Source: Asterella californica
Lineage: Eukaryota; Streptophyta; Marchantiopsida; Marchantiales; Aytoniaceae
Assembly: GCA_036924285.1 (NCBI GenBank)
Contig: JAYKYS010000009.1
Location: 8,618,001 to 8,682,000, forward strand
Length of the DNA: 64,000 nt
Direction of reading: 5' to 3'
The translations under genes were made by a program, and so were the position numbers. The notes below the pieces were generated by a model. It searched no databases. It had not been told where the DNA came from and saw only the letters and a list, made by a program, of their open reading frames with translations. Shown in pieces: positions 1-18,225 of this stretch (its first letter is position 1; the number at the start of each line of letters is the position of its first letter).

Positions 1-1041
1 TAAAGTCATATCTACGCCTAGAATACTCCCCAAAGCAATACAAATGTCGCACTGGAAACTTTTCAGCCAGCTGTCGCTAACAACTCGAGACCTAGAGTAG
101 ATATCGTTGCCGATACAACTCGGCAAAAAAACCAGCGAACTTTCACACATGATAGGTACAGATCTACAGCTCAGTCTCCTCTCAAACTTGCCACGTAGGT
201 AGAATACTAAAATCTCTACTTGCATGTCAAATTTCAGGAAGATCTGACGGCTAGATCTCCTCCCACAATTAACACAAATCCACAGAAACTAACACGCACT
301 TCCAATCTCAGATTCAGGACAGAAGCTTCTTCGACTAAATGAACCGTCCACTTCCACTCCAACTTCCTGTGCTATCAATTCAGAAGGTAAACTCACTACA
401 CAGGAAATTTGAGCCGATTTGACCGTTCTGATCGTCCTCCATAAATCTGCAAACTCGCTGCTTCAGATTGACAGCTTTCTGGACCCCGTCGCCTTCAAAT
501 CGCCATTGCGCTCAATCCGCAGAACATCCGGTGGTGAAATTTGTGGTCAGAGCTTCAGCAGCTGACAGACTACAAGCTCATGAAATCTGGTCTCAATCTG
601 ACGGTTCAATCACTCAAACCCCTTAATCTTACAATCGGAAGAGAAACTCTTGTACTCTCATCACTCTATGAACTTCAAATTACCATAACGTATGCCCTGG
701 ACCTCCAAATCGAGTGAAATTTGTGGTCAGATTGCTCCTCTTGTCAAGAGCTCTCCGCCCATGCCCTCTGATCTCCAAAATCCCTCGTCAAAGTGCCCCG
801 AACCTCCCAGAGCGCACACTTAGGTAGATGACAAGTTATCTTCACTTTTGGGTGGACCAATGGGAAGTTAAAGGACTCAACCTTGTCCTTTTCTGCCCCA
901 TGGAGACCCCCAGCAGATAATAGAGCATTCTAAGCTCATAAGAGCAATGTTTTAGATCCCATTACACCACAACTTCTACAACTGTGTGCAAAACGTACTT
1001 ATACGGGTAATTTACATATTAACTGGTCCCACAACAGGACA
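1..1041 (-). repeat. 3' LTR of element 1, partial
   Basis: Gap-free direct repeat of 8078-9118. It ends at 1041, where the polypurine tract begins. About 990 further bases are expected to the left of the window. Confidence 0.93.
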
Positions 1042-1053
1042 TTCACCCCCTCC
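1042..1053 (-). other. Polypurine tract of element 1
   Basis: Read on the minus strand this is GGAGGGGGTGAA, directly before the TGTCC start of the 3' LTR. This is the expected plus-strand priming site. Confidence 0.75.
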
Positions 1054-1086
1054 AAACCTGCACATCCTCCGGTATGTGCCAACTTG

Positions 1087-3621
1087 TTATCCATAGTCAT
1101 CATCGTATCCCTCATCGTGCTCCGAATTGTCAGGTTCATCATCATCTTCCCTCGCATAAGGTCTGGAAAGATGAGAATCAGACTCGAGAAGTTCATCGAA
1201 ATCAAGAAATCCTTCACGTCTTCGGAAGACCTTGACCCTTTTACCAGCAATGGGTAACTTCAAGAGTGTACCATCCAATTCTCGCAAACCATATGTTGCA
1301 TTGTCGTGAACGACAACAACAACATAAGGACCAAACCAACGTCGTGCAAACTTCTTGATAGTGCTGTGTTGGTTATCCAAACTGTTGTCATATACGATGA
1401 CCCAGTCACCTTCGCGGATCGGCTTCTTTCGCAGTCGATGTGTCTTGTCGAACCGCTCCTTGTTCTTCAACCTCGCCTCCTTGAGTTTGACCAATGCTTC
1501 TTCGAGGTCCTCCTCACGTCGCTCAAGCTGCTGAATTCGTAGTGCTAATAGTCCTTCCCTATCAGAACCATCCTCCCAAGGTAGACATACCCAAGTAGGA
1601 ACGTCTCCTTCTGCTGGCATGATAGGTTTTTGACCGGTCATCAATTCTGTGGGCATGTAACCAGTGACAGTACTATGAGTAGTTCTATCAGCCCACAACG
1701 CAAAAAGAAGAAGTCTAGGCCAGTCCCCATGACGCCCCCTGCACGCTTTCACCAATGCTTGGATGATTGGTGGGTGCCCTCGTTCACTTTTCCCATTCGC
1801 TTCCGGGTTCATCGAAGTGGTCAACTTCAATCGTATTCCATATCTGTTGAAGAACTCACGTGCTTCATCTGCATTCAACTCTCCTCTATCTGCACGGATT
1901 CTCCCCACGCTTCCATATCTAGAAACTATATCTTCTAATATGAATCGACAGGCAGGTTCAGTAGCTTTGGTGCGTAGAGCCCTCCCTTCTACAAAGTTAG
2001 ATAGCTCTTCCCGAGCCAAAACTAAATGACGCATGCCCCAAATTCCTGGTGGCATGGCAACCAAATCCAAAACCCATTGGAAATGAATGTACAAGGGATA
2101 TGTGGGTCTCAATCCATCCTTATACCGAATCTTGGATTGGAATTGACATTCAATGCATGACCCAACAAACTTCTCTACATCTCGATACAATCCTTTCCAC
2201 CAATACCTCTCCTTGATCTTGGTAAAGGTCGCCCATGTACCTCGATGACCTGCCCATAAGGTATCATGAAATTGTTCGAGTACTTGTTTCTTGGTCTCTG
2301 CATCATCCACTACTCTCAAGGGTACTCCATCTCTCCTCTTTGGCCTCTTCCACAGATATCCATCTCGTAATAGATAGCCATAGGCCTGATGTCGTATCTC
2401 CTTGAAGACTTTCTCCGTCCATTCTTCATACTTCTGAAGAGTGCTTAGATAGCGTCCGATTTCTTTGAGCCTCCCACAGTAGAGTTCTTCCCTGAAAGGA
2501 AGAACACCATCCAAGCGACTCCGGTCCTCGCTTGATAGTTGCAGAACTTGCCCCTCCTCTGCATCATCTTCATCCATATCTTCCGCCTCCATATCTTCTT
2601 CTTGAGAGTACCTAGCTCTAGACAACATGTCTGCCATCGAGTTCATCTTCCCTGCTATGTGCCTCAACTCTGGATTCAACGACCTAATGTAAGCTATCCA
2701 ACGTAACATAGCAATATCAGGCGTTGTGCAGTTTGCTATCATTCCCAACAGAGGTAAGCAATCAGTTTCAAGTAGTACATGTGCTCCAATGAGATACTCC
2801 TTCTCAGCTTTCATTGCAGTTACAACGCCCCATAGCTCTCGTTTGACTTGAGAGTATCTCCTTTGTCGATCCGAAAGTATGCGAGCACCAAATCTTGTTG
2901 CAAACCTCTTTTCCTCACCATCATCCTGCCCTATTGCCCAACCTATAGCGATAGGACTAGTATCAACAGTAACGACTATGGGTCTACCACAATCATAGCT
3001 CAACTGTCGTAGAACTGGTGGTGATTTCAACGCTTCTTTTAGTCGCACCATAGCGACCCTCTGCTCCTCACCCCAAGTGAACCTCCTTCGCTTCCTCAGC
3101 AACTCATACAACGGTTCAGACATGTGACCAAAATGAGGAATCCACACTCGATAGAACAAACAAGCTCCCAAGAATCTCCTGACCTCTGTGGTGTTGACAC
3201 AATCTTTCATCCTCCCAATGGCATCAACCTTTGATGGGTTTGGACGTCGACCAAAAGCTCCACAAAGATGACCAACAACAACAATCTCTGGTACTCCAAA
3301 GCTCGACTTCTCTGCTGAAAGAGTGAGATTTACCTCCTCAAGCCTTGTTAAGATCATCTCCACATCGTGAATATGATCAACCACAAACCTTCGACATCCA
3401 TCCTCAGTCAGCTTCTCATCTTTGTCTTCGGCCGCACACCCTTTCATAGGAATATCATCTATGAAAGGTATGGTCTTCTCCGGAATGAATTCTCTCAAAA
3501 TCCTATTCATTGCATTTTGCACATGCGCAACAGAGTTTGTCGCTCCTTGCGGTAATGTACACATCCTTACAAGCCCAAGCGGAGTACGCATGGTGGTGAG
3601 ATCTCTGCTCTCCATTGCCAA
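1087..3621 (-). CDS. Element 1 pol, C-terminal part: RT, RNase H, integrase
   Basis: 844 aa in frame with the preceding RT piece, beginning directly after the internal TAG. RT catalytic motif is FIDD (in place of YxDD). RNase H follows, then an HHCC integrase zinc domain (H-x-TLWAGHRG...CIEC). The integrase core has D in VLDLVAMP, D in IRADRG and E in NGKSERG, so the DDE triad is present. The C-terminus holds a GDWV-type SH3-like fold region and an acidic tail. No chromodomain was recognised. The product would copy and insert the element if the upstream stop and frame change were bypassed. Confidence 0.9.
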   Translation of the reverse strand: MAMESRDLTTMRTPLGLVRMCTLPQGATNSVAHVQNAMNRILREFIPEKTIPFIDDIPMKGCAAEDKDEKLTEDGCRRFVVDHIHDVEMILTRLEEVNLTLSAEKSSFGVPEIVVVGHLCGAFGRRPNPSKVDAIGRMKDCVNTTEVRRFLGACLFYRVWIPHFGHMSEPLYELLRKRRRFTWGEEQRVAMVRLKEALKSPPVLRQLSYDCGRPIVVTVDTSPIAIGWAIGQDDGEEKRFATRFGARILSDRQRRYSQVKRELWGVVTAMKAEKEYLIGAHVLLETDCLPLLGMIANCTTPDIAMLRWIAYIRSLNPELRHIAGKMNSMADMLSRARYSQEEDMEAEDMDEDDAEEGQVLQLSSEDRSRLDGVLPFREELYCGRLKEIGRYLSTLQKYEEWTEKVFKEIRHQAYGYLLRDGYLWKRPKRRDGVPLRVVDDAETKKQVLEQFHDTLWAGHRGTWATFTKIKERYWWKGLYRDVEKFVGSCIECQFQSKIRYKDGLRPTYPLYIHFQWVLDLVAMPPGIWGMRHLVLAREELSNFVEGRALRTKATEPACRFILEDIVSRYGSVGRIRADRGELNADEAREFFNRYGIRLKLTTSMNPEANGKSERGHPPIIQALVKACRGRHGDWPRLLLFALWADRTTHSTVTGYMPTELMTGQKPIMPAEGDVPTWVCLPWEDGSDREGLLALRIQQLERREEDLEEALVKLKEARLKNKERFDKTHRLRKKPIREGDWVIVYDNSLDNQHSTIKKFARRWFGPYVVVVVHDNATYGLRELDGTLLKLPIAGKRVKVFRRREGFLDFDELLESDSHLSRPYAREDDDEPDNSEHDEGYDDDYG

Positions 3622-4638
3622 CTAGAACTGATCATACCCAGAGTATAAATCTCCAATCGAGTAGATAGCACGACCAGCAAAAGCTTCTGCAACTTCATCT
3701 ACTATGGGTCCTGCTCCCATGTTTCGAATAGTCACCTTGTTAGCATGTTGCATGTCTTGGATGAACCTAAGAGCCCCTGACTTCTTAGGTACAGTAAACC
3801 ACCGACTCGAGTAAGGTCCCATAGATGGCTCTAAAATACCCATGCGTATCTTCTCTTTCAACAATTCCACAAGCTTTGGCAACATAGCTCGTGGCACTGG
3901 TATAGGCTTCAAGTCCCAAGGCACATGTGGTACTGTGAAGATCACCATGGGTGCTACGACACTCGTATCTGCACATCCAATCTCTTCTGCACTGAAAGAA
4001 AAAGCCTTTCCATGCCTTCTCAACATCTCATGAAAACGCTTTCTCTCTTCCTCAGTGAGAAACTCACCCCCTCCAATCTGCAGTCGTTTGAGTGTCTCTT
4101 TTGTGAACTTGTGCCCTACTCTCTGTGAATCCCGCAGAACTGGTTCAGTCGATGCTCGTTCCACTTGCTTGTTAGAGTCTTCAGGTAGTTGAGTAGCCAC
4201 CGGCTTCACTTTTCGCGCCATAGTCTTGTATTTTGTATGAACCTGCGCTTCTTGATGTTTCATGGCTCTACTCCTTTCTAACTCCAACTCATGATCTCCT
4301 TTCATCTGAAGCTGAACCTTGTAGCCATCCTCGACAAATCTTGTAATCTCCTCATGTAACTCACGTGAACGGATTGCGACTAATCCATTAACCAAAGAAT
4401 CGGTGCTTATAAACGACAAAACCTCCTCAAGAGTATCTTCAAAGCCCTCTTCTTCATACACCCCGTTAATGAACTCCTGATCTACCAAAACTCCTTGAGT
4501 TTTGAAGAGATCTTCCTGCTTCTTCACACTTCGTCTTTGTACACTATCCATCTCTTCTACCACTCGAAATCTATTTACACATGTTTCAGAAAACTGAGCA
4601 AATCCACATTTAAACATCTCTTCTTCATCTTCTGGCAC
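3622..4638 (-). CDS. Element 1 pol, N-terminal part: linker and start of reverse transcriptase
   Basis: 338 aa from a GTG-initiated frame that is open further upstream, so this is probably not an independent start but the -1 continuation of gag-protease. The C-terminal third is the start of a Ty3-type RT: the conserved proline-rich entry region, RFIQDMQHANKVT, and SIGDLYSGYDQF. The frame stops with TAG at 3624-3622 inside the conserved YDQF-x-L motif, where relatives carry Q. The next in-frame codon continues the RT, so the stop interrupts one domain. Confidence 0.85.
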   Translation of the reverse strand: MPEDEEEMFKCGFAQFSETCVNRFRVVEEMDSVQRRSVKKQEDLFKTQGVLVDQEFINGVYEEEGFEDTLEEVLSFISTDSLVNGLVAIRSRELHEEITRFVEDGYKVQLQMKGDHELELERSRAMKHQEAQVHTKYKTMARKVKPVATQLPEDSNKQVERASTEPVLRDSQRVGHKFTKETLKRLQIGGGEFLTEEERKRFHEMLRRHGKAFSFSAEEIGCADTSVVAPMVIFTVPHVPWDLKPIPVPRAMLPKLVELLKEKIRMGILEPSMGPYSSRWFTVPKKSGALRFIQDMQHANKVTIRNMGAGPIVDEVAEAFAGRAIYSIGDLYSGYDQF

Positions 4639-4697
4639 TAGCGGAAGGCTCTTTCTCCTATCAACACTCCCATACTCCCGCTCTACATGAGTGCTAA

Positions 4698-7043
4698 CTA
4701 AAAATCCAAAAACTCTTTGTCAGTCCTTAAGGGACTGTCTCTCAACTTCTCTCTGTTCCTTTCATGACCCGTACGTACAGTAAGAAACTGTACCGCCCTC
4801 GTACCATCTTGACTTTTGATACGAGCATAATGAGACCCATCGTCCATTACTTTCGTCTCCATCCTAGACGCAGTAATGTACGGTTGACCTAGGATCACAG
4901 GATACGTAGCTATACTCTGAACAAAAAAGTTTTGTTCTATCTCTACATCTCCTATCCGAGTCTTGACAGCTGGACAAGCACCAAAAAGTTCACCTCTTTG
5001 GTTGTTAGCAGCACGAAGAACCCATCCATGTCCTGTGTCCATTGGCCACTTCTCCTTCTCGTAAACATTTTTGGACATGATATTAATCTCCGAACCGTGA
5101 TCCACCAACGCCACTATAGCCTCTGACAAGTTACCCAGTCGGACCCTTGTCCCTGTGGTTGCACGAGCCCAATATGCTCGAGAATAGTGACTCTCATGTT
5201 GCTTCTCGTCGCCATATTCTGCAGCACAGTTTGAAACTCTTGCCTCTCTTCCTTTCGACGCCTGTAGTACATGCTTTTGAGCAAATACGCGACCTAACTC
5301 TTCATCTTCTTCCCCAGTGATGTCAGTATCCAATGCTTTCACCATCACTGTATCTGCAGTCATCTGCCTCTTTCTCTTGATCACATCTATGATCAACTCA
5401 TGAAAGTCACGTTTGGCTATTCCCAAGGCTTCTCGCAAGGAAAATTCTATCTTTGCATCCAAAATTCTCTCTTCAAGAATCTCCTTCAAGTTGGTGGTGG
5501 TCTCGATATCTGACTGTAGTCTGTAGGTCGGTGCTTTACCTTTGCCCTTTGAAGAAGCTCCTTTGCCTTTCTCTCTCATCTCCGTGTCATAAATAGGAAC
5601 ATCAACCATAGGTTCAGATGTAGATGCCCCTTGAGACGTTGAAGGGATATCAGAAGGTGATGCCTCTTGTTGCCCTCTCCTCTTCGTGGCTCTGGCTCTC
5701 CTTGTAGCCTCCTCCGGGTCAACAACATCATCATCACGTCTCCTTTTCTCTTCCACAATCGCATCTTGCCAGCTTACATGCTTCTCTTGTACCAAGTAAG
5801 CCTTGACACACCCTGCCTCTACAGGATCATCCCATCCAGTAATGCGGCGAATTGCCTCCGCACCTCGTAACATTACTTCTCGTGGAACTTCAACTACATC
5901 GCTCTTAATAGCTGCTACAACCGGTACATCTACTTCAGTCGCAAATGTTTCTGGCTCTATTGTGCGTATCGCCGTAGCTATACCAACCTGACCTCTCACC
6001 AAACTCTTCATTCCTCCCTTACCAAAGTTGGTATTCAACGGCGCACCAGTTTGGGCGAGATGAATCTTTCCATCTCTAAAATTCACGACTCCGGTTCTGA
6101 GAGCTTCGGAAAACTCCTCACAATCTCGTCGTTGGTGTTCAGTACTGTCACACCAGATACATCTTCTAACAAAATTTCTGCTAGTTGATGATGCATTGGT
6201 ATCACCAGGACTCCGACTATGCTTTAGCTCTGCCATCTCTATCCTTAACTCTCTCAGACCATTAACCAACTCATCGATAGCAGAATCTTCAATCTTGCTA
6301 TTGGCAGACATGGGCAATGGAGCTAAAGAGACATCAGACCTCAAGGTTGCAGCTCTACCTCTTCCACGTTTCTGCTTCGTGAGAATAGTAACAGCTTCCT
6401 CTACCTTTCTCCAGTCCGTGCTCACTCCTCCTTCTTCTCCCTTGTCTGCTAACATCAAGAAAAGCTTGTCCTCTAGATTTTCATCAGCAGCTTCTAGAAA
6501 AAGTTCTGTCTTCCTTAAGTCAAGCGTTGTCCTCTCGGATGGAGACAATTGACAGAACCGTTTCTCAAACTCACGCAGCAACTCATTTGACGTCATCTCA
6601 TTCCGCGGACGCTGCTCTATCCACTCCAAGAATGTTCTTTTGGTTACTCTATCCGCATCATCATCAAAAAATTCACTCTTCAACCTCTGCTCATACTCCT
6701 CCCAAGAACTCGTACGTGCATCCTTCAACTTTGTCACTTGACTACGGATCTCAAGTATCACAGCCAACTCGAAACTAGAAATCATCTCTGTCTTAAGCAC
6801 ACGATTTACCTCCATCTGACAAATATACTCCCGAACATACTTCGTGATGTTCCTTCCATCGAACCTCCCCAACTTCTTCACCACCGCTTGTAGAGCTCTT
6901 GTAGACTTCTGCTCTCCAACATCGCCTCCTTGTTGTTGTCTCAACAACATCGTCAATGCTCGAAGCAGATCGTCCGCTCCTCCTCCACTCGTCCCCATTG
7001 CTTCGGGAAGATTCATACTTGACGCTCCTCGGCAACAACTCAC
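4698..7043 (-). CDS. Gag-protease polyprotein of element 1
   Basis: A 781-aa frame starting with ATG just after the primer-binding site. The N-terminal 250 residues match retrotransposon gag in layout. A CCHC zinc knuckle (CIWCDSTEHQRRDC) sits near residue 293. A long charged linker is followed by a retropepsin-like domain near residue 645, where the active site reads DHGS instead of the usual DSG/DTG, followed by a family-typical LGQPYI motif. Gag would form the particle and the protease would cut the polyprotein. The frame ends at a TAG after a run of five T, and the next frame lies at -1, so pol could be reached by a -1 slip. Confidence 0.9.
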   Translation of the reverse strand: MSCCRGASSMNLPEAMGTSGGGADDLLRALTMLLRQQQGGDVGEQKSTRALQAVVKKLGRFDGRNITKYVREYICQMEVNRVLKTEMISSFELAVILEIRSQVTKLKDARTSSWEEYEQRLKSEFFDDDADRVTKRTFLEWIEQRPRNEMTSNELLREFEKRFCQLSPSERTTLDLRKTELFLEAADENLEDKLFLMLADKGEEGGVSTDWRKVEEAVTILTKQKRGRGRAATLRSDVSLAPLPMSANSKIEDSAIDELVNGLRELRIEMAELKHSRSPGDTNASSTSRNFVRRCIWCDSTEHQRRDCEEFSEALRTGVVNFRDGKIHLAQTGAPLNTNFGKGGMKSLVRGQVGIATAIRTIEPETFATEVDVPVVAAIKSDVVEVPREVMLRGAEAIRRITGWDDPVEAGCVKAYLVQEKHVSWQDAIVEEKRRRDDDVVDPEEATRRARATKRRGQQEASPSDIPSTSQGASTSEPMVDVPIYDTEMREKGKGASSKGKGKAPTYRLQSDIETTTNLKEILEERILDAKIEFSLREALGIAKRDFHELIIDVIKRKRQMTADTVMVKALDTDITGEEDEELGRVFAQKHVLQASKGREARVSNCAAEYGDEKQHESHYSRAYWARATTGTRVRLGNLSEAIVALVDHGSEINIMSKNVYEKEKWPMDTGHGWVLRAANNQRGELFGACPAVKTRIGDVEIEQNFFVQSIATYPVILGQPYITASRMETKVMDDGSHYARIKSQDGTRAVQFLTVRTGHERNREKLRDSPLRTDKEFLDF

Positions 7044-7061
7044 TCAACCACCTCAAAGCGT

Positions 7062-7080
7062 GCTCTCAGTGGAAGCACCA
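7062..7080 (-). other. Primer-binding site of element 1
   Basis: On the minus strand, TGGTGCTTCCACTGAGAGC begins four bases inside the LTR terminus. It starts with the TGG expected for pairing with a tRNA CCA end. The donor tRNA was not identified. The gag start codon follows only about 20 bases later. Confidence 0.6.
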
Positions 7081-7084
7081 AATA

Positions 7085-9118
7085 TGTCGTAGCGAGAGCC
7101 TTTCCTTTGAGCAAGGGCGTACCTTCTGGCTGTGGTTAGCGATCGATACACAGCAGAGCGACTAGTATCTCGTAGATTTCTCTCTAACTTCCTCGATAAC
7201 TAAGCACTTTCTTTCTCTCAGTAAAGGGTCAAGATAACTACACGAAAACGTTGGATGATCATGGGCACGACAAACGAGATATGTGATGACATGATCTCTC
7301 GATAGTATTCCTCTCCGAAGTTTCTCACTACTAGGGCTTCGTACATGGCTTTGGGTCGACAGATGTGTCTTATCTCGCACTGGGTGTTAAAGTTTACAGG
7401 AGGGAGCTGATTTAGATCCATCCTTCGTTAGATGAGAATAAAGACGGTGAGATCTCATTCTTGGCCGTAAGTGACAACAGATAAGATCACAGGGACAGGC
7501 GAGAGCATGACTTGCGCGGTAAAGTTATGCCCGAAGGATCCTATCAGAAACTGTTGAAAGTGAACTCATTCCATATACATCAGTTTAATCGAGAAAGGGT
7601 TTCGAAAAGGGAATCTGGGCGGTAAGTAGAGTCCTTCGTCCATCTCTCACAACATGTGCACTCCAACTACAAAGGTATATCGATCCATAAAACTCTGATT
7701 CAATCTCATAGGATCACCACGATCTCTCCACGAACAATATCTTGGATTTTTCCCCAGGTCGAATGCCCCCCACACAAGTCACTCCCCTTTGCTTAAAAGT
7801 TTCGAACACAAAACAAGGATAGGTGCAAGCTCCCTAACCAAGCAACCCAAGCCTCACGGACCGATGAGGTGGCACACATGCACATCGCATGTTTGGTGCC
7901 GTCATACTCATCCACGTGTGGGTCTTCTGGGAAAAGGTTCTAATGCATGCACCGTAACGTGTCCTAAAAACCGGAGACTAGGCTAGACAGGTAGTCGACT
8001 CTACAGGTCAAGGATCGCACTTTGCCACGTTGAGTGCGAACCTAACAACCACATGACGTGGATACAACGTCGGTCGCTAAAGTCATATTTACGCCTAGAA
8101 TACTCCCCAAAGCAATACAAATGTCGCACTGGATACTTTTCAGCCAGCTGTCGCTAACAACTCGAGACCTAGAGTAGATATCGTTGCCGATACAACTCGG
8201 CAGAAAAACCAACAAACTTTCACACATGATAGGTACAGATCTACAGCTCAGTCTCCTCTCAAACTTGCCACGTAAGTAGGATACTAAAATCTCTACTTGC
8301 AGGTCAAATTTCAGGAAGATCTGACGGCTAGATCTCCTCCCACAATTAACACAAATCCACAGAAACTAACACGCACTTCCAATCTCAGATTCAGGACAGA
8401 AGCTTCTTCGACTAAATGAACCGTCCACTTCCACTCCAACTTCCTGTGCTATCAATTCAGAAGGTAAACTCACTACACAGGAAATTTGAGCCGATTTGAC
8501 CGTTCTGATCGTCCTCCATAAATCTGCAAACTCGCTGCTTCAGATTGACAGCTTTCTGGACCCCGTCGCCTTCAAATCGCCATTGCGCTCAATCCGCAGA
8601 ACATCCGGTGGTGAAATTTGTGGTCAGAGCTTCAGCAGCTGACAGACTACAAGCTCATGAAATCTGGTCTCAATCTGACGGTCCAATCACTCAAACCCCT
8701 TAATCTTACAATCGGAAGAGAAACTCTTGTACTCTCATCACTCTATGAACTTCAAATTACCATAACGTATGCCCTGGACCTCCAAATCGAGTGAAATTTG
8801 TGGTCAGATTGCTCCTCTTGTCAAGAGCTCTCCGCCTATGCCCTCTGATCTCCAAAATCCCTCGTCAAAGTGCCCCGAACCTCCCAGAGCGCACACTTAG
8901 GTAGATGACAAGTTATCTTCACTTTTGGGTGGACCAATGGGAAGTTAAAGGACTCAACCTTGTCCTTTTCTGCCCCATGGAGACCCCCAGCAGATAATAG
9001 AGCATTCTAAGCTCATAAGAGCAATGTTTTAGATCCCATTACACCACAACTTCTACAACTGTGTGCAAAACGTACTTATACGTGTAATTTACATATTAAC
9101 TGGTCCCACAACAGGACA
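7085..9118 (-). repeat. 5' LTR of element 1, complete, 2034 bp
   Basis: The outer end is set by the end of homology with the left LTR (9118, next to the sequence of element 2). The inner end is set at a TGTC/GACA inverted terminus next to a primer-binding-site-like sequence. Only 8078-9118 can be compared with the left copy; 7085-8077 is assigned by structure. No gene is seen inside. Confidence 0.82.
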
Positions 9119-10702
9119 GCGGGTCCTTGCTGGACGTGTGATGGTCCTCATCAGCAGAGGGATTGTCCACAGAGGAGAGGTTATGAGACGTCAGGGACAT
9201 CAGGGACGTCTCAAGCAGCACCAAGGCAATGTGAGCATTGCGGACGACCTGGTCACAGTAGTGACCGTTGTTTTGATCTCCATCCCGAGGTGCGGCAAGG
9301 GAAGGCTGATCGTGGACGAGGCGGAGGAGCTCAGGGAGGCCGTGGTGGTCGAGCTGGAGGTAGAGGTCCAGCACCTGGGAGAGGACCGGTCGGTCCACCG
9401 TCTGCTACGACGTCAGAAGCAGGTATGGCTGCTCGGATTGAGCAGTTGGAGCAGAGGATAGCTAGTATGACTATGGCTCAGCGGAGATCAGGTGGAACAG
9501 AGGCTTCCACGTCTTATGGAGGAGAAGGAGGTGACTTCGACTTCATGGCTGGTGTGGCGCAGATTGAGGCATCTGCGGCAGTGACTAGAGGTGCAGTACG
9601 TGCCTCTGAGCCACGAGGTGCGTCAGTGGAGTTGGATCCACAACGCGGGGAGGCTGGTAGACAGGCCAGACTTCCTCAATCGTTCACGTTATCGGAGGCG
9701 TTGAGGACCACATCTATGGTTCCTAAACGGCCTACCGATGATGCAGTGGAGTTGGAGGCATCGACATCCAGGAGTGGGTGTGATGTGAGTCCACCCTCGA
9801 CGTCTGTGGATGCGACGTCGAACCCGATGTTGGGGGCGGCTACAGCAGTTTTGCGAGCCTCACTATTCTCAGCCACGGATATGAGAGCACTGGGAGTCAA
9901 CTTGGCTCTAGTGTTCCAGTTGGCGGCCACGCTCAATGAGAGCGAGGATGTAGTTACCTCTAGTGCTGAAGTAGTTCAGCGAGAGGCGGTAGACGTGTCC
10001 ATAGAGTCGAGGATCATGACAGCTATCAGTGGTACTTGGCAAGCGGCGGCTGCTAGGTTAGATGAGTTACCAGCTAGGCCGGCGATTGACCGTGCTGGTT
10101 TGGCACCAGGTGTGGTGTTGTTGGACAACAGAAGTGGTATCTTTTGTTTGGTGGCACCTTCAGGGAAAGTGTATCGACCTCAGAAGGTCTTGTTAGACTC
10201 TGGAGCCCAACCGTTAATGTTGAGAAAGGCGGCGTGTATTGGTTTGGGTCTGAAGAAGTCCGAAATAGAGAGATGTCCATTCCAGTTGCAGACATCTCTA
10301 GAGGGATCAGGAGGTACGGCTCTACATATGACACGTGAGATGTTCACGGTGAGAGTTCGGCCAGATCACCCCACGGATGGCTCTATGGTGAGGGCCAAGG
10401 CCATCGTTACAGCCGTAGAGTCTTATGATGTATTGGTGGGAGGTGCTGTGTTGTACCCTATGGGGTTTGTGATCGACTATTGGGCGGAGACAGCATCTTA
10501 CAGACCTGGTTGGCAGTCCGGTGAGGGACGAGTGAGCCGCTTACCAGTGCGGTTCAGTGCTAGAGTTGTTGGACGATGGCATCCGTTGCAGGGTTCAGTT
10601 CGGTCATCACTTGGCCGGGCGAGTTGTTGGAGGGCAATGCCCATGCGGAGGATACTCCGGTCTTTGAGGAGGTGGAGGACATGCCTAGCATGTCTACGTT
10701 AG
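9119..10702 (+). CDS. Element 2 gag C-terminus and aspartic protease (5' truncated)
   Basis: The frame is open from the element 1 junction at 9119; an internal GTG at 9290 is not the true start. Two zinc knuckles follow at once: CWTCDGPHQQRDC (9128 on) and CEHCGRPGHSSDRC. Next come a GR-rich linker, a coiled segment and a long variable region. A retropepsin-like domain has DSGA at about 10196-10207, followed by conserved YDVLVGGAVLYP and YRPGWQSG. Knuckles bind the RNA genome and the protease would mature the polyprotein. The frame ends at 10702, overlapping the methyltransferase frame by about 127 bases in a -1 relation. Confidence 0.88.
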   Translation, partial: AGPCWTCDGPHQQRDCPQRRGYETSGTSGTSQAAPRQCEHCGRPGHSSDRCFDLHPEVRQGKADRGRGGGAQGGRGGRAGGRGPAPGRGPVGPPSATTSEAGMAARIEQLEQRIASMTMAQRRSGGTEASTSYGGEGGDFDFMAGVAQIEASAAVTRGAVRASEPRGASVELDPQRGEAGRQARLPQSFTLSEALRTTSMVPKRPTDDAVELEASTSRSGCDVSPPSTSVDATSNPMLGAATAVLRASLFSATDMRALGVNLALVFQLAATLNESEDVVTSSAEVVQREAVDVSIESRIMTAISGTWQAAAARLDELPARPAIDRAGLAPGVVLLDNRSGIFCLVAPSGKVYRPQKVLLDSGAQPLMLRKAACIGLGLKKSEIERCPFQLQTSLEGSGGTALHMTREMFTVRVRPDHPTDGSMVRAKAIVTAVESYDVLVGGAVLYPMGFVIDYWAETASYRPGWQSGEGRVSRLPVRFSARVVGRWHPLQGSVRSSLGRASCWRAMPMRRILRSLRRWRTCLACLR

Positions 10703-11700
10703 TACCATCTGCCTTGGATGTTCCACTCTGGAGTTCGAGTGGAGAGTTGCAGCAGTATGCTGATCAGTTGGTGCAGCAGGCTTGGAGTGAAGCTTTTGTA
10801 CCACCAGTAGAGGAACAAAGGGTTGTTCCTGCTACTGGCCCTGTGACCTTATCACCGTTGGATACGACTCCTATTGTGTGGCAGTATCCAGAGGAGGGTG
10901 TATGTGTGCTGGAGCTGTTTGGAGGTATCAGCACAGGTTTGGCTGCGGTATTGCAGGCAGGTATACAAGTACAACGATACTTGTATGTGGAGAGAGATGA
11001 GATTGCGAGACGCATCTCATTGCGACATGTGGCACGTTTGGTGCAGAGATATCCTGAGTTGTTGCCCATATCAGCTGTTAGAGGATACCAGCAAGCATTA
11101 CCGTCGGATATTTCGCTGTTGGGGGCGCAGGATCTTACGTTTGTTGGCACCATTCACTTGGTGATAGCCGGATGGCCATGTCAAGGTCACACGCGTGCTG
11201 GGAGAGGTCAGGGTTTACATGACCCGCGATCTAGGATGTTATGGGAGATGTTACGGATCTTACGACATCTCCAGATGCATCAGGTGGATTCTCCAGCGTA
11301 CATCTTGGAGAACGTTCCTTTGTTGGGTGATGCTCGTACACAAATGATGGCGAGTGTGCACCAAGTGCGGTCTTGGATTGGACCAGCAGTGTTGTTGGAT
11401 GCAGCGAGAGTAGGATCTCGTGCACATCATCCACGGTTGTGGTGGACGAACTTGTTACCGAGAGAGGTGCTTAAACGAGCACACGATGGAGTGAGACGAC
11501 CAGCACATCTCACGGTTGATAGCATCTTGGATGCAGGACGACGATCTCAAGTAGTGAGAGTCGTCGATAGGTCACCCATGGCAGTGGTGAACCTAGTGGG
11601 ACGGCCCATGGTAGCATTACCTACTTTGGTAAGCTTTCCAGCGTCACATGCTTACAGAGATGGAGGCCCTGGGCTTGTGTGGGATGCTCAATTACGGTAG
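10576..11700 (+). CDS. Cytosine-5 DNA methyltransferase domain of element 2 (motifs I-VIII)
   Basis: 374-aa frame. After a 105-residue leader it shows C5-MTase motifs in order: motif I VLELFGGISTGL (111-122), motif II YVERDE (137-142), catalytic motif IV AGWPCQGHTRAGRG with Cys202, motif VI ENV (245-247), and motif VIII-like RVGSRAHHPRLWW (278-290). The FGGISTG form of motif I and the SRAHHPR region resemble DNMT3/DRM-type enzymes more than DNMT1/CMT. It would methylate cytosine with S-adenosylmethionine as donor. The frame ends with TAG at 11698-11700, before motifs IX and X, which follow in the same frame. The ATG at 10576 may be bypassed, because the frame probably opens by a -1 shift from gag-protease. 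Confidence 0.88.
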   Translation: MASVAGFSSVITWPGELLEGNAHAEDTPVFEEVEDMPSMSTLVPSALDVPLWSSSGELQQYADQLVQQAWSEAFVPPVEEQRVVPATGPVTLSPLDTTPIVWQYPEEGVCVLELFGGISTGLAAVLQAGIQVQRYLYVERDEIARRISLRHVARLVQRYPELLPISAVRGYQQALPSDISLLGAQDLTFVGTIHLVIAGWPCQGHTRAGRGQGLHDPRSRMLWEMLRILRHLQMHQVDSPAYILENVPLLGDARTQMMASVHQVRSWIGPAVLLDAARVGSRAHHPRLWWTNLLPREVLKRAHDGVRRPAHLTVDSILDAGRRSQVVRVVDRSPMAVVNLVGRPMVALPTLVSFPASHAYRDGGPGLVWDAQLR

Positions 11701-12099
11701 TTGGTGGAGCCCAATGTCGATGAGAGAGAGCGAGCGATGGGTTTCGCTACGGGTACGACGGCAGTAGTTTCGGTGTCGGAGGCTTCACGTCGTCAAGTAT
11801 TGGGTCAAGCAATGGACTTGAATTGCTTGACATGGATTGTTAGCCTTGGATTGGTTGAGCAGCGTCGGATGCGATCGACGGGTGTTACTGCTCGAGCACT
11901 CTTGAGCTCTTTGCCTACCGGGTCGGTGGAGACAAAGGCTGGGGGCGAGGCACGTGGAGTTCGTCATCCTTGGACATCATGGGATGTCATAGGAGAGAGT
12001 GTGGAGTTTGCAGCTAGAACTGCAGAAGTTTTACGTACAGTAGCGGTGGAGGTTGTTGGTGGTGAGCAGAAGGAAACTGCTCCAGAGGCTGCAAGATAG
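11701..12099 (+). CDS. C-terminal motifs IX-X of the element 2 methyltransferase, after an in-frame TAG
   Basis: Directly in frame with the preceding piece. ERERAMGF and RRQVLGQAMDLN are the conserved C-terminal C5-MTase segment that packs against motif I, so the enzyme is only complete if the TAG is read through or was once a sense codon. After residue 60 it becomes a family-unspecific linker, which relatives would join to the integrase. The listed start (TTG) is not a real initiation codon. Confidence 0.82.
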   Translation: MVEPNVDERERAMGFATGTTAVVSVSEASRRQVLGQAMDLNCLTWIVSLGLVEQRRMRSTGVTARALLSSLPTGSVETKAGGEARGVRHPWTSWDVIGESVEFAARTAEVLRTVAVEVVGGEQKETAPEAAR

Positions 12100-12164
12100 C
12101 AGTCAACGACTTCGTCTTCTACCTCTAGCATGGTGTTCCAGACCAGCGAGATATCCATGATGAT

Positions 12165-12767
12165 GTGACCGTGATGGAGTATCTACGTACTGGTGTGGTA
12201 GTAGGCACAGTAAGTGCCAAGGAGCGAGATCGTGTCCTTCAACGAGCGAAGAGATTTCGACGAGAAGGACGACATGTACTTCGAGTGTGGGGTGATGGGA
12301 GGGTACGGATAGTGCCACATCCATCTCAGAGGGCACAGTTAGTACGACATGCCCATGAGGAGTTGGGACATTTTGGAGTGAAGCGTACAAATAGCTTACT
12401 CCAAGGACAGTATTGGTGGCGTGGTATGCACATCGATGTGCAACAGTTTGTCGCACGGTGTGTGGTTTGTGATCGAGTACGAGCATCGTTTAATGCTCCT
12501 ACTCCACAGTTACACCCCTTACCGATTATGGGATTGGGTTACCGTTGGAGTTTGGATTTTGCGGAACCCTTACCGTTGACCGTACGTCATCACCGGTATG
12601 TGTTGGTGATGGTGGAGCACTTCTCCAAGTGGATTGAGTTGGTGGCATTACCAGACAAGGCGAGTGAAGAGACAGCGTATGCGTTCTTAGATCGAGTGCT
12701 GAGTCGTTTTGGAGCACCAGCTGAAGTGCTGACAGACCAAGGTATAGAGTTCCTTGGTGAGTTTTAG
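12165..12767 (+). CDS. Element 2 integrase, N-terminal part
   Basis: About 200 aa, in a different frame from the methyltransferase. MEYLRTG opens a typical gypsy RNase H-integrase linker. The HHCC zinc domain follows (HAHEELGHFG...CVVCDR), then the integrase core with first D in RWSLDF and second D in VLTDQG. Ends at TAG (12765-12767) inside the conserved EFLGEF-x-AL segment; the same frame continues. This product inserts element DNA into chromosomes. Confidence 0.9.
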   Translation: MTVMEYLRTGVVVGTVSAKERDRVLQRAKRFRREGRHVLRVWGDGRVRIVPHPSQRAQLVRHAHEELGHFGVKRTNSLLQGQYWWRGMHIDVQQFVARCVVCDRVRASFNAPTPQLHPLPIMGLGYRWSLDFAEPLPLTVRHHRYVLVMVEHFSKWIELVALPDKASEETAYAFLDRVLSRFGAPAEVLTDQGIEFLGEF

Positions 12768-12770
12768 GCC

Positions 12771-13592
12771 TTGTGTGATCAGGCGCTGATTGATCATCGG
12801 ACTACATCTCGAGATCATCCTGAGGCGGATGGTTTGGCGGAGAGGGTAGTTCAGACGGTGAAGAGAGGATTGCGCAAGTATGGCTTGCAAAAGGGCCACT
12901 TGGGAGACTGGGATGTGCAGTTACCATGGTTGGTTATGGGCTACCGTTTCAGCCGACAAGTGTCTTTGGCTTCCTTCTCACCGTATTTTCTATTGTATGG
13001 CCGAGATCCAGATCTACCTTCGGCCATTCGTCGTGATTCTGCTGAGGTGCTGGACCTTGATGATCCGGATATGTGGGTGAGAGCATGTTCTCAACGAGCA
13101 GAGACATTTCGGAGAGTTATGCCTATGGCTTTTGAGAACCTAGCGATTGCTCAGCATAGAGACACGTTGCGATATGCGACTATCCGAGGAGGAGGTTATC
13201 GGCCGTCGATTCGCAGGTTTTATCTTGGCGATTATATCTATCTACAGCAGACTGCACCGACGACGTTGGACGTGACCGCAAGGCGCACTATTTTACGAGT
13301 GCGTGAGGTGTTACCTTCTGGAGTACTCATGTTAGAGGGCCGTGATGGTGTTGTGTGGAAGGACCATGTGTGTAATTGCGCGCCATGTCATCTTCCCAAC
13401 ATTGATGGTACCGTTGACCCAAGCTTAGCAGTTGTACGCGCGGGCTTGAGGTGTATGTTGTGTGGGTCTGTCGGTGGAGCAGCCCGTATGTTGATGTGTG
13501 ATGGTTGTTCGAGAGATTGGCACATGTCATGTTTGACTCCACCTCTCAGTGTCGTTCCTACTGGACGGTGGGTTTGTCCTCGATGTATATAG
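12771..13592 (+). CDS. Element 2 integrase C-terminal part with terminal PHD finger
   Basis: Continues the same frame after the TAG. Catalytic E lies in DGLAERVVQT, so the DDE triad is complete across both pieces. The C-terminal domain has GGGYRP and GDYIYLQQ. The last 45 residues form a full PHD finger, C4-H-C3: CMLC, MLMCDGC, WHMSC and WVCPRC. PHD fingers of this class bind histone H3 tails. By analogy with chromodomain-bearing integrases, this could direct insertion to a given chromatin state (inference). The frame ends naturally at 13592, 65 bases before the proposed LTR. Confidence 0.9.
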   Translation: MCDQALIDHRTTSRDHPEADGLAERVVQTVKRGLRKYGLQKGHLGDWDVQLPWLVMGYRFSRQVSLASFSPYFLLYGRDPDLPSAIRRDSAEVLDLDDPDMWVRACSQRAETFRRVMPMAFENLAIAQHRDTLRYATIRGGGYRPSIRRFYLGDYIYLQQTAPTTLDVTARRTILRVREVLPSGVLMLEGRDGVVWKDHVCNCAPCHLPNIDGTVDPSLAVVRAGLRCMLCGSVGGAARMLMCDGCSRDWHMSCLTPPLSVVPTGRWVCPRCI

Positions 13593-13656: not shown

Positions 13657-14274
13657 TGTAGCACCCGGCCTCCTGATCCTTGCACCCATGAAGGTGTGTA
13701 TCACGTAGTTGAGATATGGAGCTATCTGGAGTTAGAGGGACCTAACTGCCAGTTAGTGGGGCGATTGTGGTACACTTGTGTATGTGTATGACATCGTCCA
13801 TGTGTTATGTGTATGTGTGGTGTACCTCTGACAGCGATGTATGTTGTGTAGCGATGTGTATGCGCACGACAGCTGTCACGTCAGTTTGGGCACCTCGGCT
13901 AGGTTGACCGAGTGCGAAGTGGCGCATCCCGGTAAGGCCGTTAGTGCCGTTAGGGCGAGTTGGAGAGAGAGCCCACTAGGGGTAAACTTCGCAGGTAGGG
14001 CTTGGAGGCCTTAGTTCTTTGAGTTGAGCCTTCAAGCTCCAAGCTATGGTGGATAGTCTAGTTGAATGTAACCCGGATTCTCTTCGTGCTTAGAGTGGGT
14101 TTGGCTTGACCGTTTGTGAGTAATCCTTGTTGTGGTGTTGGAGATGGTAATTTCTCAATGCAGATTATTGTGGTACACTTGTGTATGTGTATGACATCGT
14201 CCATGTGTTATGTGTATGTGTGGTGTATCTCTGACAGCGATGTATGTTGTGTAGCGATGTGTATGCGCACGACA
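13657..14274 (+). repeat. Probable 3' LTR of element 2 with an internal 108-bp duplication
   Basis: Starts TGTAGCACCCGG after the purine-rich ACGATGGGGCGA, as plant gypsy LTRs often do. A segment at 13764-13871 recurs at 14167-14274 with about one difference. The partner 5' LTR lies outside the window, so the right end is unproved. Confidence 0.5.
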
Positions 14275-16243
14275 AATTCAATCCATATGTCACGAAAATC
14301 TATCTAGAAAGCTAAAGCTATAGATGTCTAAAACATATACATAGCTTTTAAATTATATATATATATTAGTCTTTGTTACTACATGATCTCGTAAACAACG
14401 CTCGTCAAGTATCACACCTCAATCTTAAAACCATGTCATCACTTCTGTCTAGTCAGCATCCTACTAAATCAGCGTTGTGTCATTGTGGATGTCACATCAA
14501 CCACTCAAACACCATGTCAGTGCTATGATGTTCCAACCGTAGAAGTTTTAATTGTCTAGAACTTTTTCATATTTCCTTCAAGGATCAAACTATCAGTTTT
14601 GGTCTCTTCGACAAGAATTATACAACGATATTGTTAAACACTTGTTTACAACAAATCTAGAAAATAATATTCTTATAACCATTTCACTCTCTAGCTGATC
14701 CATGACCGACAGAAGATAGATACAAATGATGGAAAAGATTACATCTGACAACTGCTATGTTCTATTATTTGTGATATAGGTGAGCTTCATGAATTTTAGA
14801 AAAGAATTATATACATAATGTATGTCAAAACTTACGAAAGAAATCTATAACGCATGTATGTTGAAGCGTACTCCAAGAATCATAAAACCAGTTTCTTGTC
14901 TTATAAAAAATTAGATTATGTTATAAGGTTTAATTTCTTATCTAACCTTTCCCACGGGAAGGATTAGGAATTCTCCTCCTCTGAACTTGGAAGAGATGAT
15001 ATTAATATGCATGCTTTATGAACATACGCAGATTATTTCTGTTCAATTACTTGAGCAATTTAGTGGTTTTTCCATCTCGAGTTTCTCATTTCTCTGAACT
15101 TAGTTCATGCGTTAATAAAGAGTGTCAAATTTAACGTCCGTGGTGTTTACTCTTTTTTCCGTGGGTGATAGTTCTAGGCACGGGCTGTCCAAATTACGAA
15201 TAGTCTGCTAGTATTTATGTAGTGTCCGTGAGAAGTTCAGCCATAAGATACATTCAGTTGACAACGTCATAATGATGTTGTCAATGATAATAATGTCAAT
15301 GATAATAATGCTGCTGATAATGACATATACTATTTACAGGCAACTTATTTTGACCTAATTTCTAAGTCATAACAACTTAGATCGAAACAACTCGTTTGGA
15401 TCTAAGAGTTAGGTGTTGTTTTGAACTGGAATGAAAACAACGTTTTTTTAAGAGTATTTAGCTCTATGTAACTTCTTGCAAACAGCTCAGTTTGTGACTT
15501 TTTTTTAGTCTTGTTAGAAACATCGTGAGAAGGGCTTTTCAAGACATTGAGATTTGAAGCTATATTCTTGATGCTGCAAGCATTCAAATTTTATTGATTT
15601 TTTTAAGTATTTGATGGTGGACTTTTTGTTTCGACCTAGATTTAAATTAAAACTTAAATGTGTCGACTTGGAAATCTTAAACAAGTATATTTAAGAACTG
15701 TAACTCTCGTAGATACACAAACAAAGAGAATTCACTATAGTAAATAAGAAGATGAATTGATTGTTCTATCTTGTTCATATCTTTTCAAATTTGAATTAAA
15801 TAGAATAATTTAAAACTTCTCTTTTAGATCTCACGAGCATGAATTATAGACTTGGATAAAGTTATCTTTTCATTCGTATTTTAAACTAAATTAAAAATTA
15901 GTATTCTTTTGTTCGTTAGAAATTTTATTTCTTAACTCTGCACCCCGTAATTCCATAAACCTCATTCATCGTAAAACAAAAACTAGAGAGAGAATAGGGG
16001 TGCTCGCTGAAACGTCGTGAGCGCGTTTCCCAGTGCTCAAACGCGGCGCACTGATATGCGAGGATGTGATTTGGGCGAACGAAGCCCAACTCTTCTTTGG
16101 CGAGCGGCCATCCTAGTAAAAACCTCCCTCTCAAATTCAACGCCAAAACAGATAGAAGTAATGTAGTTTCCAAGAATACCAAGTTCTAATATAAGTAAGT
16201 ACAATGGTACGCATAGTACTGTAGTCGGGTGGATGGTGGAGGG
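14275..16243. other. AT-rich intergenic stretch without recognisable gene
   Basis: Only short, low-complexity open frames on both strands. Small GATAATAAT repeats occur near 15280-15320. A frame at 16137-16424 (minus) runs over the edge of the small DNA element and resembles nothing known. Confidence 0.6.
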
Positions 16244-16424: not shown

Positions 16425-17337
16425 TGTAACGACCTATGTTACACATAGGAAGTTTGTCTATTAGTAAGGTGTTTAGTTATAACTAAGTGTTGAGAATGTT
16501 TATTGGTTGCCAAAGTACTTTAAGGAGGTATCAAGTTAGTCATGACTAGCTAAAAGTTAGTTATGGTTAAACTTAGCTGTACTTTTGGCAGAATTCAGAT
16601 ATTTGCTAAAGAGTGAGCACTACTATCTTGTCATCTTGTCTAAAAGGTAGAAAGGGGGTGGAAAGTATCCCTTATCTCCTTTTTGACTTGATATTAGTGG
16701 TTGGATTAAAGTTGTGGACTTTGTGGGCATTAAAAACAAGAAGAGATTCCACATGTTTCCTTTTTAGTGGGTCCTAGTGTAGAGGGGGGGTGGAAATTCG
16801 AGATTCCTTGAGAATATTCCAGAATCCTTCTAGAAGTTGTTGACTTTGAAGGAATAAGCCCATGTGAAAAGGTAAAAAGCCCATGTGATCAATGCTTTTA
16901 CCTTAAGTAATATCTTAGTAAAACCCGGTAAAAGTAGTTACGGCTGAGTTACCGGAGGGTACCAAAGTAAAAACCTAGAATGTATAAATAGAGGAGTAGA
17001 GAAGAGCTCCTCATCATTGTTTTCACATTGTCGTAATGACAACTTGAGTAATATAGAGAGTGTGGGATATTTTTAGCATGTGAGAACTTGAGAGACGTCG
17101 TTAGAATGGAGGATTTTAGTTGATGTGTTTAAGGAGATTTTTAGTTGATAAGTTTGTGGGTGTATGAATGAGTGAACTCAGCATTTTCCCTTCAAGTTCA
17201 TGGTGTGCTTCCATCAAAGCCATCAGAGGTGACCCCTGAGTGAGAGACAGGCCCTACATGTTGCAGATTCGTGGATGACGATCGTGGAGGTTGAGAGATC
17301 GGGGGGTAGTGATCGATAGGACCGCGGAGGGTTTACA
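16425..17337 (+). repeat. 5' LTR of element 3
   Basis: 913 bp, TGTAA...TTACA. A TATA box (TATAAATA, 16983-16990) and a downstream CTCCTCATCATTG initiator-like stretch mark the likely U3/R boundary. Confidence 0.95.
16983..16990 (+). promoter_or_regulatory. TATA box in the element 3 LTR
   Basis: TATAAATA about 350 bases before the LTR end, the only good TATA in the LTR. The same sequence occurs in the right LTR at 24815. Confidence 0.6.
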
Positions 17338-17339
17338 TT

Positions 17340-17360
17340 TTTGGTTCCGTTGCCGGGACC
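17340..17360 (+). other. Primer-binding site of element 3
   Basis: TTGGTTCCGTTGCCGGGA follows the LTR end. It closely resembles the TGGCGCCGTTGCCGGGGA site used by many plant gypsy elements. Confidence 0.7.
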
Positions 17361-17639
17361 TCACTTGAAAGGATCGTTGAACGATGTTTAGAGTTCAGTT
17401 CTATATTCGACAAAAGGAGATTATGAGAGAGCACATGGAGAGAACGTTGGGAGGAGAGAGAGCTAACGCGATGTTAGCAACGTTAGAACCTTTCGTGTAT
17501 CCCGTAGTGATATATGACGCGTTCGAAGTCATTCTTTACATCTTGTTCACTTAGAAAGGGTTTGAGGAGAGTTGAAAGAGGGTGCAACAAGAGTTGTAGA
17601 GAAAGGAGGAGAGAAAAGTTATTAGAGGAGATAAATTTG

Positions 17640-18120
17640 TGAGTTTAGAAATTCTGCTCTCTAGAAAATTTGTACAGTCGCTGTCAACTTTTCTGTGAAT
17701 TTTATTTTCCTGTGATACTTTCCATTGTTTTAGATTGGCTGATAACCTATCTAAGACAAAAGAAATCATAGGAAAAGGTGGTCTAGAGAGGGAGCAATGA
17801 ATTTTCAAAGTTGAGGGGGTCTATTCGTGAGAGTTGAGGAATTCTGTTATCTGGAAAAAATTTACAGTCATTGTCAGATTTTCTGTGAATTTTATTTTCC
17901 TGAGAAACTTTCCAGTGTTTTAGAGTGGCTGATAAGCTATCCAGGACAAAAGAAATCATGAGAAGATGAGGTCTGAAGAGGGAGAAAGAATTTTTCAAAA
18001 AGGAGAGGGTTGACAACCACGAGGGAAGTGAAAATATACAAATTTCAGTTCTCTGAAAATTTGTACAGTCATCACCATCTCTTCTGATTAGGGAATTTTC
18101 TGTTGAAACTTCATGATTTA
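17640..18120 (+). repeat. Tandem repeats of about 193 bp in the element 3 leader
   Basis: Blocks near 17648, 17841 and (partial) 18035 share ATTTGTACAGTC, TTTTATTTTCCTG and GACAAAAGAAATCAT. The copies have diverged, which contrasts with the nearly identical LTRs, so the array predates this insertion. Confidence 0.75.
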
Positions 18121-18225
18121 GTAGCTTGGAGGTTGAGCTACTGGAGATAACAAAAATCTTGGAGAGATCTCTTACCAACTAAGAGATACACGTTTCGGCA
18201 TACAAGGAGGTCTTGAAGATACTTC

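What the first reader, a model, noticed from the sequence alone, without database searches (positions are those of the whole stretch)
10576..12099. Retroelement encoding a DNMT3-like cytosine methyltransferase
Seen: C5-MTase motifs I, II, IV (PCQ), VI (ENV), VIII-like and IX-X in order, between a retropepsin and an integrase, on the same strand and in overlapping or adjacent frames. Known: DNA methyltransferases captured by retrotransposons have been reported in dinoflagellates and the charophyte alga Klebsormidium. Inference: the element may methylate its own or related copies, trading expression for host tolerance, or may maintain a silent, heritable state.
Basis: partly seen in the sequence, partly recalled or inferred. 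Interest (0 to 1): 0.9.

Follow-up and report, generated by a model that had tools for sequence, protein, structure and literature searches.

The report
Jumping gene carrying DNA methyltransferase
The window holds one decayed copy of an abundant, recently active retrotransposon of a plant-lineage genome that carries its own DNMT3-type DNA methyltransferase, a kind described before in a green alga, so it extends a known oddity and does not reveal a new one.

Summary
A DNMT3-type cytosine methyltransferase (MTase), motifs I to X in canonical order, lies at 10903-11847 between a protease-like region and an integrase. It belongs to a Gypsy-type retrotransposon family: a 44-base MTase motif occurs 991 times in the host genome, control 0. 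Better-preserved copies show the layout: ORF1 = Gag, CCHC, protease, MTase; one in-frame UAG followed by CAGUCA, which fits the UAG-CARYYA readthrough consensus; ORF2 = RT, RNase H, integrase, PHD finger. The window copy is a wreck: another Gypsy sits in its gag region, a private 1.63-kb deletion took RT and RNase H, and frames are broken. The ends are split repeats, A-coding-B-A-B, with 4-bp target duplications. MTase pN/pS is 0.255 among copies picked for open frames; 5 of 12 copies have identical repeat pairs. All this matches KnitGypsy-Dnmt3 of Klebsormidium (PMC5890265). Added here: another genome, high copy number, MTase before a likely leaky stop, 4-bp duplications, PHD finger; a word search of that paper's main text found none of the last three for its Gypsy element. 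What the MTase does is untested.

The parts
9119..10563 (+). 3' part of Gag (two CCHC knuckles, 9128-9169 and 9230-9271) and protease-like region (DSGA 10184-10222; YDVLVGG 10424-10480); the 5' part of the element lies left of the window, cut off by a nested Gypsy
   Evidence: ORF; motif positions; no Pfam hit; 84.9-92.9% protein identity to 15 other copies
10576..11847 (+). ORF1 segment with the DNMT3-type C5-MTase, motifs I-X at 10903-11847; premature stop at 11698-11700 private to this copy
   Evidence: the stop is absent from 15 of 15 other copies compared
11848..12096 (+). C-terminal tail of ORF1 after motif X
   Evidence: ORF; 11701-12096 is 89.4-95.5% identical to 15 copies
12097..12105 (+). 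family ORF1 stop UAG plus CAGUCA: fits the type I readthrough consensus UAG-CAR-YYA
   Evidence: same 9 bases in 21 of 21 distinct copies read; consensus as given in PMC3542737 (passages)
12118..12160 (+). stretch around the junction of the private deletion of about 1,633 bp that removed RT and RNase H; a short sequence is shared by both edges
   Evidence: (1 hit in the genome, up to 3 mismatches)
12150..13451 (+). integrase (H2C2, DDE core); premature stop at 12765-12767
   Evidence: Pfam Integrase_H2C2 1.7e-17, rve 3.9e-12; stop absent from 14 of 14 other copies that have this stretch
13452..13586 (+). PHD finger at the integrase C-terminus
   Evidence: Pfam PHD 6.7e-11; KDM5B PHD 1.7e-12
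13764..13871 (+). terminal repeat B, first copy (B1), preceded by a purine tract
13872..14166 (+). terminal repeat A, second copy (A2); its partner A1 lies left of the window, from C765:8614260
14167..14274 (+). terminal repeat B, second copy (B2); right end of the element
14275..14278 (+). 4-bp target-site duplication AATT (other copy at C765:8614256-8614259)
1..9118 (-). separate Gypsy retrotransposon nested in the gag region of the MTase element (reaches left to C765:8617009); its 4-bp duplication GCGG is at 9119-9122
   Evidence: LTR pair 1-1041 / 8078-9118, 11 of 1041 differ; RT, RNase H, IN; boundaries

Best explanation
The MTase is a resident domain of a Gypsy-type retrotransposon family. 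SHOWN: it forms the C-terminal domain of the Gag-protease ORF, just before a conserved UAG in a readthrough context; RT, RNase H, integrase and PHD follow in the same frame; copies carry 4-bp target duplications; several are young; the MTase is under purifying selection. INFERRED: lying before the leaky stop, the MTase is made at Gag level, in excess over RT and integrase, and enters the particle with Gag; there, or just after integration, it methylates the new cDNA de novo, so that the copy arrives already methylated, which may mark it as self, protect it, or keep it quiet at low cost to the host. The PHD finger probably steers integration through a histone tail. The window copy itself is dead. 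The confidence below is for the SHOWN part; I put cDNA methylation as the MTase's job at about 0.4.
For: 991 genome hits of an MTase motif, 0 control. In 15 of 15 copies fetched ORF1 of 1367-1381 aa ends in the MTase (all 15 had been picked from the list for such a frame). ORF2 of 1038-1041 aa is open in 9 of 15; in L013 it holds RT, RNase H, integrase and PHD. UAG-CAGUCA in 21 of 21 distinct copies. Exact 4-bp duplications in 10 of 12 copies, 3 of 4 bases in the other 2. Repeat pairs without mismatch in 5 of 12 copies. pN/pS over 105 pairs of 15 copies: MTase 0.255, gag 0.239, PR 0.201, RT-RH 0.088, IN 0.151, PHD 0.295. MTase variants shared by copies are less often amino-acid changing (29 of 81) than singletons (55 of 96), p=0.006. 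Symbiodinium DIRS-Dnmt3 MTases methylate CG de novo in yeast (PMC5890265).
Against: No methylation, expression or particle data. The K. nitens Gypsy MTase showed no activity in yeast, which its authors call inconclusive. MTase constraint is weaker than that of RT and IN. Copies are not more CpG-depleted than the rest of the window. All copies were found by their MTase, so relatives without it would not have been seen; the 15 were picked for open frames, which favours low pN/pS and a conserved stop (5 of the 21 copies with the UAG context were not so picked). Readthrough is inferred from sequence only.
Confidence: 0.9

Rival explanations
1. The MTase acts mainly on the host genome: many copies supply extra de novo methylation, and the host has adapted to it.
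For: High copy number (991 motif hits) and young copies. The authors of PMC5890265 speculate so for Symbiodinium.
Against: The host has DRM loci and a DNMT3-type exon of its own. K. nitens, with such elements in fewer copies, has a plant-like methylome. No methylation data here.
Confidence: 0.15
2. The MTase is a structural or nucleic-acid-binding part of the particle, with catalysis unimportant or directed at RNA.
For: It sits in the Gag-side polyprotein, and its pN/pS is Gag-like rather than RT-like.
Against: The catalytic PCQ and ENV motifs are invariant in the 7 aligned copies.
Confidence: 0.2
3. The MTase serves defence of the host cell against DNA viruses, as proposed for accessory domains of retrotransposons in PMC6338049 (passages).
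For: Published hypothesis only.
Against: Nothing here bears on it; the same passages suppose that land plants lost transposon-encoded MTases.
Confidence: 0.05
4. A host DNMT3 fragment was joined by chance to retroelement pieces at this one locus.
For: The window copy is broken and lacks RT.
Against: Protease region and MTase together in 15 of 15 copies, integrase too in 14 of 15; 991 motif hits; one duplication, AATT, flanks the whole window element.
Confidence: 0.01
5. The window represents an RT-less, non-autonomous subfamily in which the MTase replaced RT.
For: No RT or RNase H in 6 frames between the Gag remnant and the PHD finger.
Against: The deletion junction occurs once in the genome; L013 and the six loci have RT after the MTase.
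Confidence: 0.01

Closest known systems
KnitGypsy-Dnmt3 of Klebsormidium nitens (PMC5890265; seen: abstract, word-search passages, parts 1, 3, 4 and 5 of 7 of the main section; figures and supplements not seen)
   Same: DNMT3-type MTase without the DRM rearrangement, intronless, inside the polyprotein of an LTR Gypsy element; purifying selection on the MTase; repeats arranged as in DIRS elements although the domains are Gypsy
   Different: Other genome (517 Mb); 991 motif hits against 'fewer copies' in K. nitens (fewer than Symbiodinium); MTase here ends ORF1, before a UAG, while the paper says 'Pol polyprotein ORF'. In a word search of its main text 'PHD', 'readthrough' and 'target site' occur 0 times and 'TSD' once, for LINEs. 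Sequence relationship could not be tested.
SymbioDIRS-Dnmt3 and SymbioLINE-Dnmt of dinoflagellates (PMC5890265)
   Same: Retroelements carrying a DNMT; the DIRS type has A-coding-B-A-B repeats
   Different: They use a tyrosine recombinase or are LINEs; here a DDE integrase and 4-bp duplications
Chromoviruses (Gypsy with a chromodomain at the integrase C-terminus; abstract start of PMC3605345 in listing)
   Same: Chromatin-reader module at the integrase C-terminus
   Different: PHD finger instead of a chromodomain; MTase present
Plant DNMT3 and DRM (PMC6453930, PMC12344493; passages)
   Same: Catalytic domain closest to DNMT3 among solved structures
   Different: Not a host gene; no DRM-type rearranged motif order

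Membership tests
KnitGypsy-Dnmt3-type element | Non-rearranged DNMT3-type MTase inside the element's coding region | tested here: met
KnitGypsy-Dnmt3-type element | Gypsy domain set (protease, RT, RNase H, DDE integrase) | tested here: met
   RT, RNase H and integrase in copy L013, protease by motif only; the window copy itself lost RT and RNase H
KnitGypsy-Dnmt3-type element | DIRS-like split repeats A-coding-B-A-B | tested here: met
   16 copies, window included: A1 upstream in 15 of 16, no B found before A1 in the stretches searched; complete B-A-B in 13 of 16
KnitGypsy-Dnmt3-type element | Purifying selection on the MTase | tested here: met
   pN/pS 0.255, 105 pairs of 15 copies picked for open frames; the paper reports Ka/Ks < 0.2
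KnitGypsy-Dnmt3-type element | Common descent with the K. nitens element | not testable with these tools
   Protein database off; no K. nitens sequence at hand
KnitGypsy-Dnmt3-type element | MTase in the Pol ORF | tested here: inconclusive
   Here it ends ORF1, upstream of the UAG; the published figure was not seen
DIRS (tyrosine-recombinase) retrotransposons | Tyrosine recombinase; no target-site duplication (recalled) | tested here: not met
   rve integrase and no tyrosine recombinase in the two ORFs of L013; exact 4-bp duplications in 10 of 12 copies
Ty3/Gypsy LTR retrotransposon | Order protease-RT-RNase H-integrase, TG..CA ends, short target duplication | tested here: met
Ty3/Gypsy LTR retrotransposon | Two like, complete LTRs | tested here: not met
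   A at the left, B-A-B at the right; this lowers 'typical LTR element', not 'Gypsy by its domains'
DNMT3 | Closest to DNMT3 by sequence, canonical motif order | tested here: met
   no tree was built
DRM | Rearranged motif order | tested here: not met
   Order I, II, IV, VI, VIII, IX, X

The most novel reading that the evidence does not exclude
A mechanistic hybrid: split-repeat ends as in DIRS elements, regenerated through the internal B-A junction, but inserted by a DDE integrase with a PHD reader; and a DNMT3 made at Gag level by sitting before a leaky UAG, packed into the particle so that every new cDNA is methylated before or at integration. A retroelement would then set the epigenetic state of its own offspring.
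Probability: 0.25. Interest if true: 0.8.

Novelty: new member of a known kind. Interest (0 to 1): 0.5.

Why it matters
Why a transposon would keep an enzyme that normally silences transposons is left open in the 2018 paper (PMC5890265). This family is abundant, partly young and structurally clear, and its MTase is under selection, so the question becomes testable by methylation sequencing of young and old copies. The position of the MTase before a likely readthrough stop gives a concrete hypothesis: a particle component at Gag dose. If the host is not Klebsormidium, which its 517-Mb genome suggests, such elements are not confined to one alga among streptophytes.

Tried and rejected
Structure prediction of the MTase from one sequence gave mean pLDDT 37.9 and was not used. 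Searches outside the genome found no relative: none among viral contigs by protein (1 stretch matched a pattern, no relative) and 0 by two patterns; 3 bacterial contigs with the motif-IV pattern look like chance, with no MTase match beyond the pattern. The tools say that records near the window's own genome may be left out there. The idea that the MTase replaced RT was rejected. The idea that the genome reads TAG as Gln, raised because 10 of 11 ORF ends of the window's three retroelements are TAG, was dropped: one F-box gene ends in TAG where its neighbour paralogue ends in TAA, and the premature stops of the window copy are absent from other copies. A seemingly divergent MTase in L010 (75.8%) is a frameshift. 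No phylogenetic tree was built: reference sequences were not at hand. The host species was not settled.
Full report
What is in the window. Frames 10564-11697 and 11701-12096 encode a C5-MTase with motifs I, II, IV, VI, VIII, IX and X in canonical order at 10903-11847 (motif names recalled). Pfam DNA_methylase matches at 2e-8. Among solved structures DNMT3A is best (3.5e-8), then DNMT3B (1.1e-5), HaeIII (0.0051), a plant DRM chain (0.012), and HhaI, DNMT2-type and DRM2 near 0.1-0.2; no DNMT1 or CMT chain is among the 48 listed at E<=1. A profile of 7 copies keeps DNMT3A first (1.5e-10), the best DRM chain at 1e-4. Upstream are two CCHC knuckles and a protease-like DSGA motif (no Pfam support); downstream an integrase and a PHD finger.

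The family. The window lies in contig C765 of a 517-Mb genome. A 44-base stretch around motif IV occurs 991 times with up to 3 mismatches, the reversed control 0 times. This counts motif-bearing copies, whole or not. I fetched 20 stretches: 15 element copies, 4 host MTase loci, and the left neighbour of the window. The 15 were picked from the list for an open frame of 1367-1381 aa, so the intact fraction is no family estimate; and since all copies were found by their MTase, relatives without it would not have been seen. In 15 of 15, ORF1 holds Gag, CCHC, protease region and MTase (Gag by eye, no Pfam hit). ORF2 follows in the same frame after one stop and is 1038-1041 aa long in 9 of 15; in L013 Pfam finds RVT_1, RNase H, H2C2, rve and PHD in it. 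One of the 15 (L022) shows no integrase match in its stretch.

The stop. The codon between the ORFs is UAG and the next six bases are CAGUCA in 21 of 21 distinct copies: the 15, the window, and L006 and L008-L011, which were not picked for open frames (L007 is the same place as L023, and L032/L033 repeat L013/L021). This fits the type I readthrough consensus UAG-CAR-YYA (PMC3542737, passages). Hence the MTase is probably made at Gag level and RT-IN only by readthrough; this is inference. Genome-wide counts of this context could not be had (and repeats unanswered).

The ends. Repeats run A-coding-B-A-B: A1 upstream in 15 of 16 copies (window included), with no B found before it in the stretches searched, and B1-A2-B2 complete at the right in 13 of 16. 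The element starts TGTCACG and ends GCACGACA. Of 12 copies tested, 10 have an exact 4-bp duplication outside these ends and 2 (L025, L027) have 3 of 4 bases (in L017 the last two bases of the element had to be read by eye, since the aligned end was 2 bases short). So a DDE integrase appears to insert an element with DIRS-like split repeats. A purine tract precedes B1. How the ends are regenerated I cannot say; the internal B1-A2 junction would be the natural template.

The window copy. Its left end is at C765:8614260, its right end at 14274, with AATT on both sides. A minus-strand Gypsy (window 1-9118 and further left to 8617009) interrupts the gag region, with GCGG duplicated. A deletion of about 1,633 bp with a short sequence shared by its edges removed RT and RNase H; its junction occurs once in the genome. 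There is a frame break between protease and MTase (ORF1 is open in the other 15) and premature stops in MTase and integrase, absent from 15 of 15 and 14 of 14 other copies compared. Its A and B pairs differ at 6 of 402 positions, the most of the 12 copies measured; 5 of 12 have no mismatch. The copy is dead; the family has been active recently.

Selection. Over 105 pairs of 15 copies, pN/pS is 0.239 gag, 0.201 PR, 0.255 MTase, 0.088 RT-RH, 0.151 IN, 0.295 PHD (few sites) (gapped and stop codons left out, 3 stops in RT-RH and 5 in IN). Variants shared by two or more copies are less often amino-acid changing than singletons for the MTase (29 of 81 against 55 of 96, p=0.006), for RT-RH (p=0.002) and IN (p=1e-7), but not significantly for PR (p=0.12) and gag (p=0.21). 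So the MTase is kept by the replicating lineage, though less tightly than RT and IN.

Host. Three DRM-type loci (C419 30.57 Mb; C526 5.10 and 5.13 Mb) and a DNMT3-type exon (C1 40.15 Mb) are present (the 5.10-Mb locus was classed by its likeness to the 5.13-Mb one, not searched itself). DRM is restricted to streptophytes (PMC12344493, passage) and DNMT3 is absent from angiosperms (PMC6453930, passages), so a non-angiosperm streptophyte is likely. Its size is far from that of K. nitens (about 0.1 Gb, recalled). The species was not identified.

Comparison with what is known. PMC5890265 describes KnitGypsy-Dnmt3: Dnmt3 in the Pol ORF of an LTR Gypsy, repeats arranged as in DIRS, Ka/Ks below 0.2, silent copies methylated at CHH and CHG, no activity detected in yeast (inconclusive there). 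Our family matches in the points I could test; its ORF placement may differ. PMC12344493 mentions DNMT3 inside retrotransposons of streptophytes and dinoflagellates. Nine paper searches were answered; in the listed titles and abstract starts of those aimed at further cases or at a PHD finger on Gypsy integrases I recognised no other description. The lists are capped, I opened few of the papers, and subscription journals are mostly missing. Therefore: new member of a known kind, with added anatomical detail.

Function. Most likely the MTase methylates the element's own cDNA in or near the particle, as the 2018 authors suggested for DIRS. Nothing here tests it. CpG observed/expected of 15 copies is 0.66-0.75 (window copy 0.80) against 0.74 in the rest of the window and 0.67 and 0.71 in the other Gypsy elements, so there is no footprint of unusual methylation. 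Of 21 repeat-pair mismatches, 20 were classed: 19 transitions (12 CHH, 4 CG, 3 CHG) and 1 transversion, too few to read.

Noticed in passing
window 16425-25169: Another Gypsy element on the + strand with LTRs of 913 bp that differ at 1 position, so a very recent insertion; two of its ORF breaks end in TAG.
   Followed up: partly
window 1-25169, three retroelements: 10 of 11 ORF ends examined are TAG, 1 TAA; might reflect a mutation bias of methylated DNA in this genome.
   Followed up: partly
L030 and L031 (C526 5.10 and 5.13 Mb): Two nearly identical DRM-type ORFs on opposite strands about 30 kb apart: perhaps a recent inverted duplication of a host de novo methyltransferase.
   Followed up: no
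window 48282-49769 (-) and 50172-51623 (+): Divergent pair of F-box genes whose products end alike.
   Followed up: no
window 17638-18010: 183-bp tandem duplication, 81% identical, in the leader of the + strand Gypsy.
   Followed up: no
window 31029-39296: Several long ORFs; the two tested (31029-31745, 38241-39296) had no Pfam match; a guess is an undescribed DNA transposon.
   Followed up: no
window 13452-13586: The PHD finger on the integrase resembles those of KDM5B and PHF21A; its histone target is unknown.
   Followed up: partly
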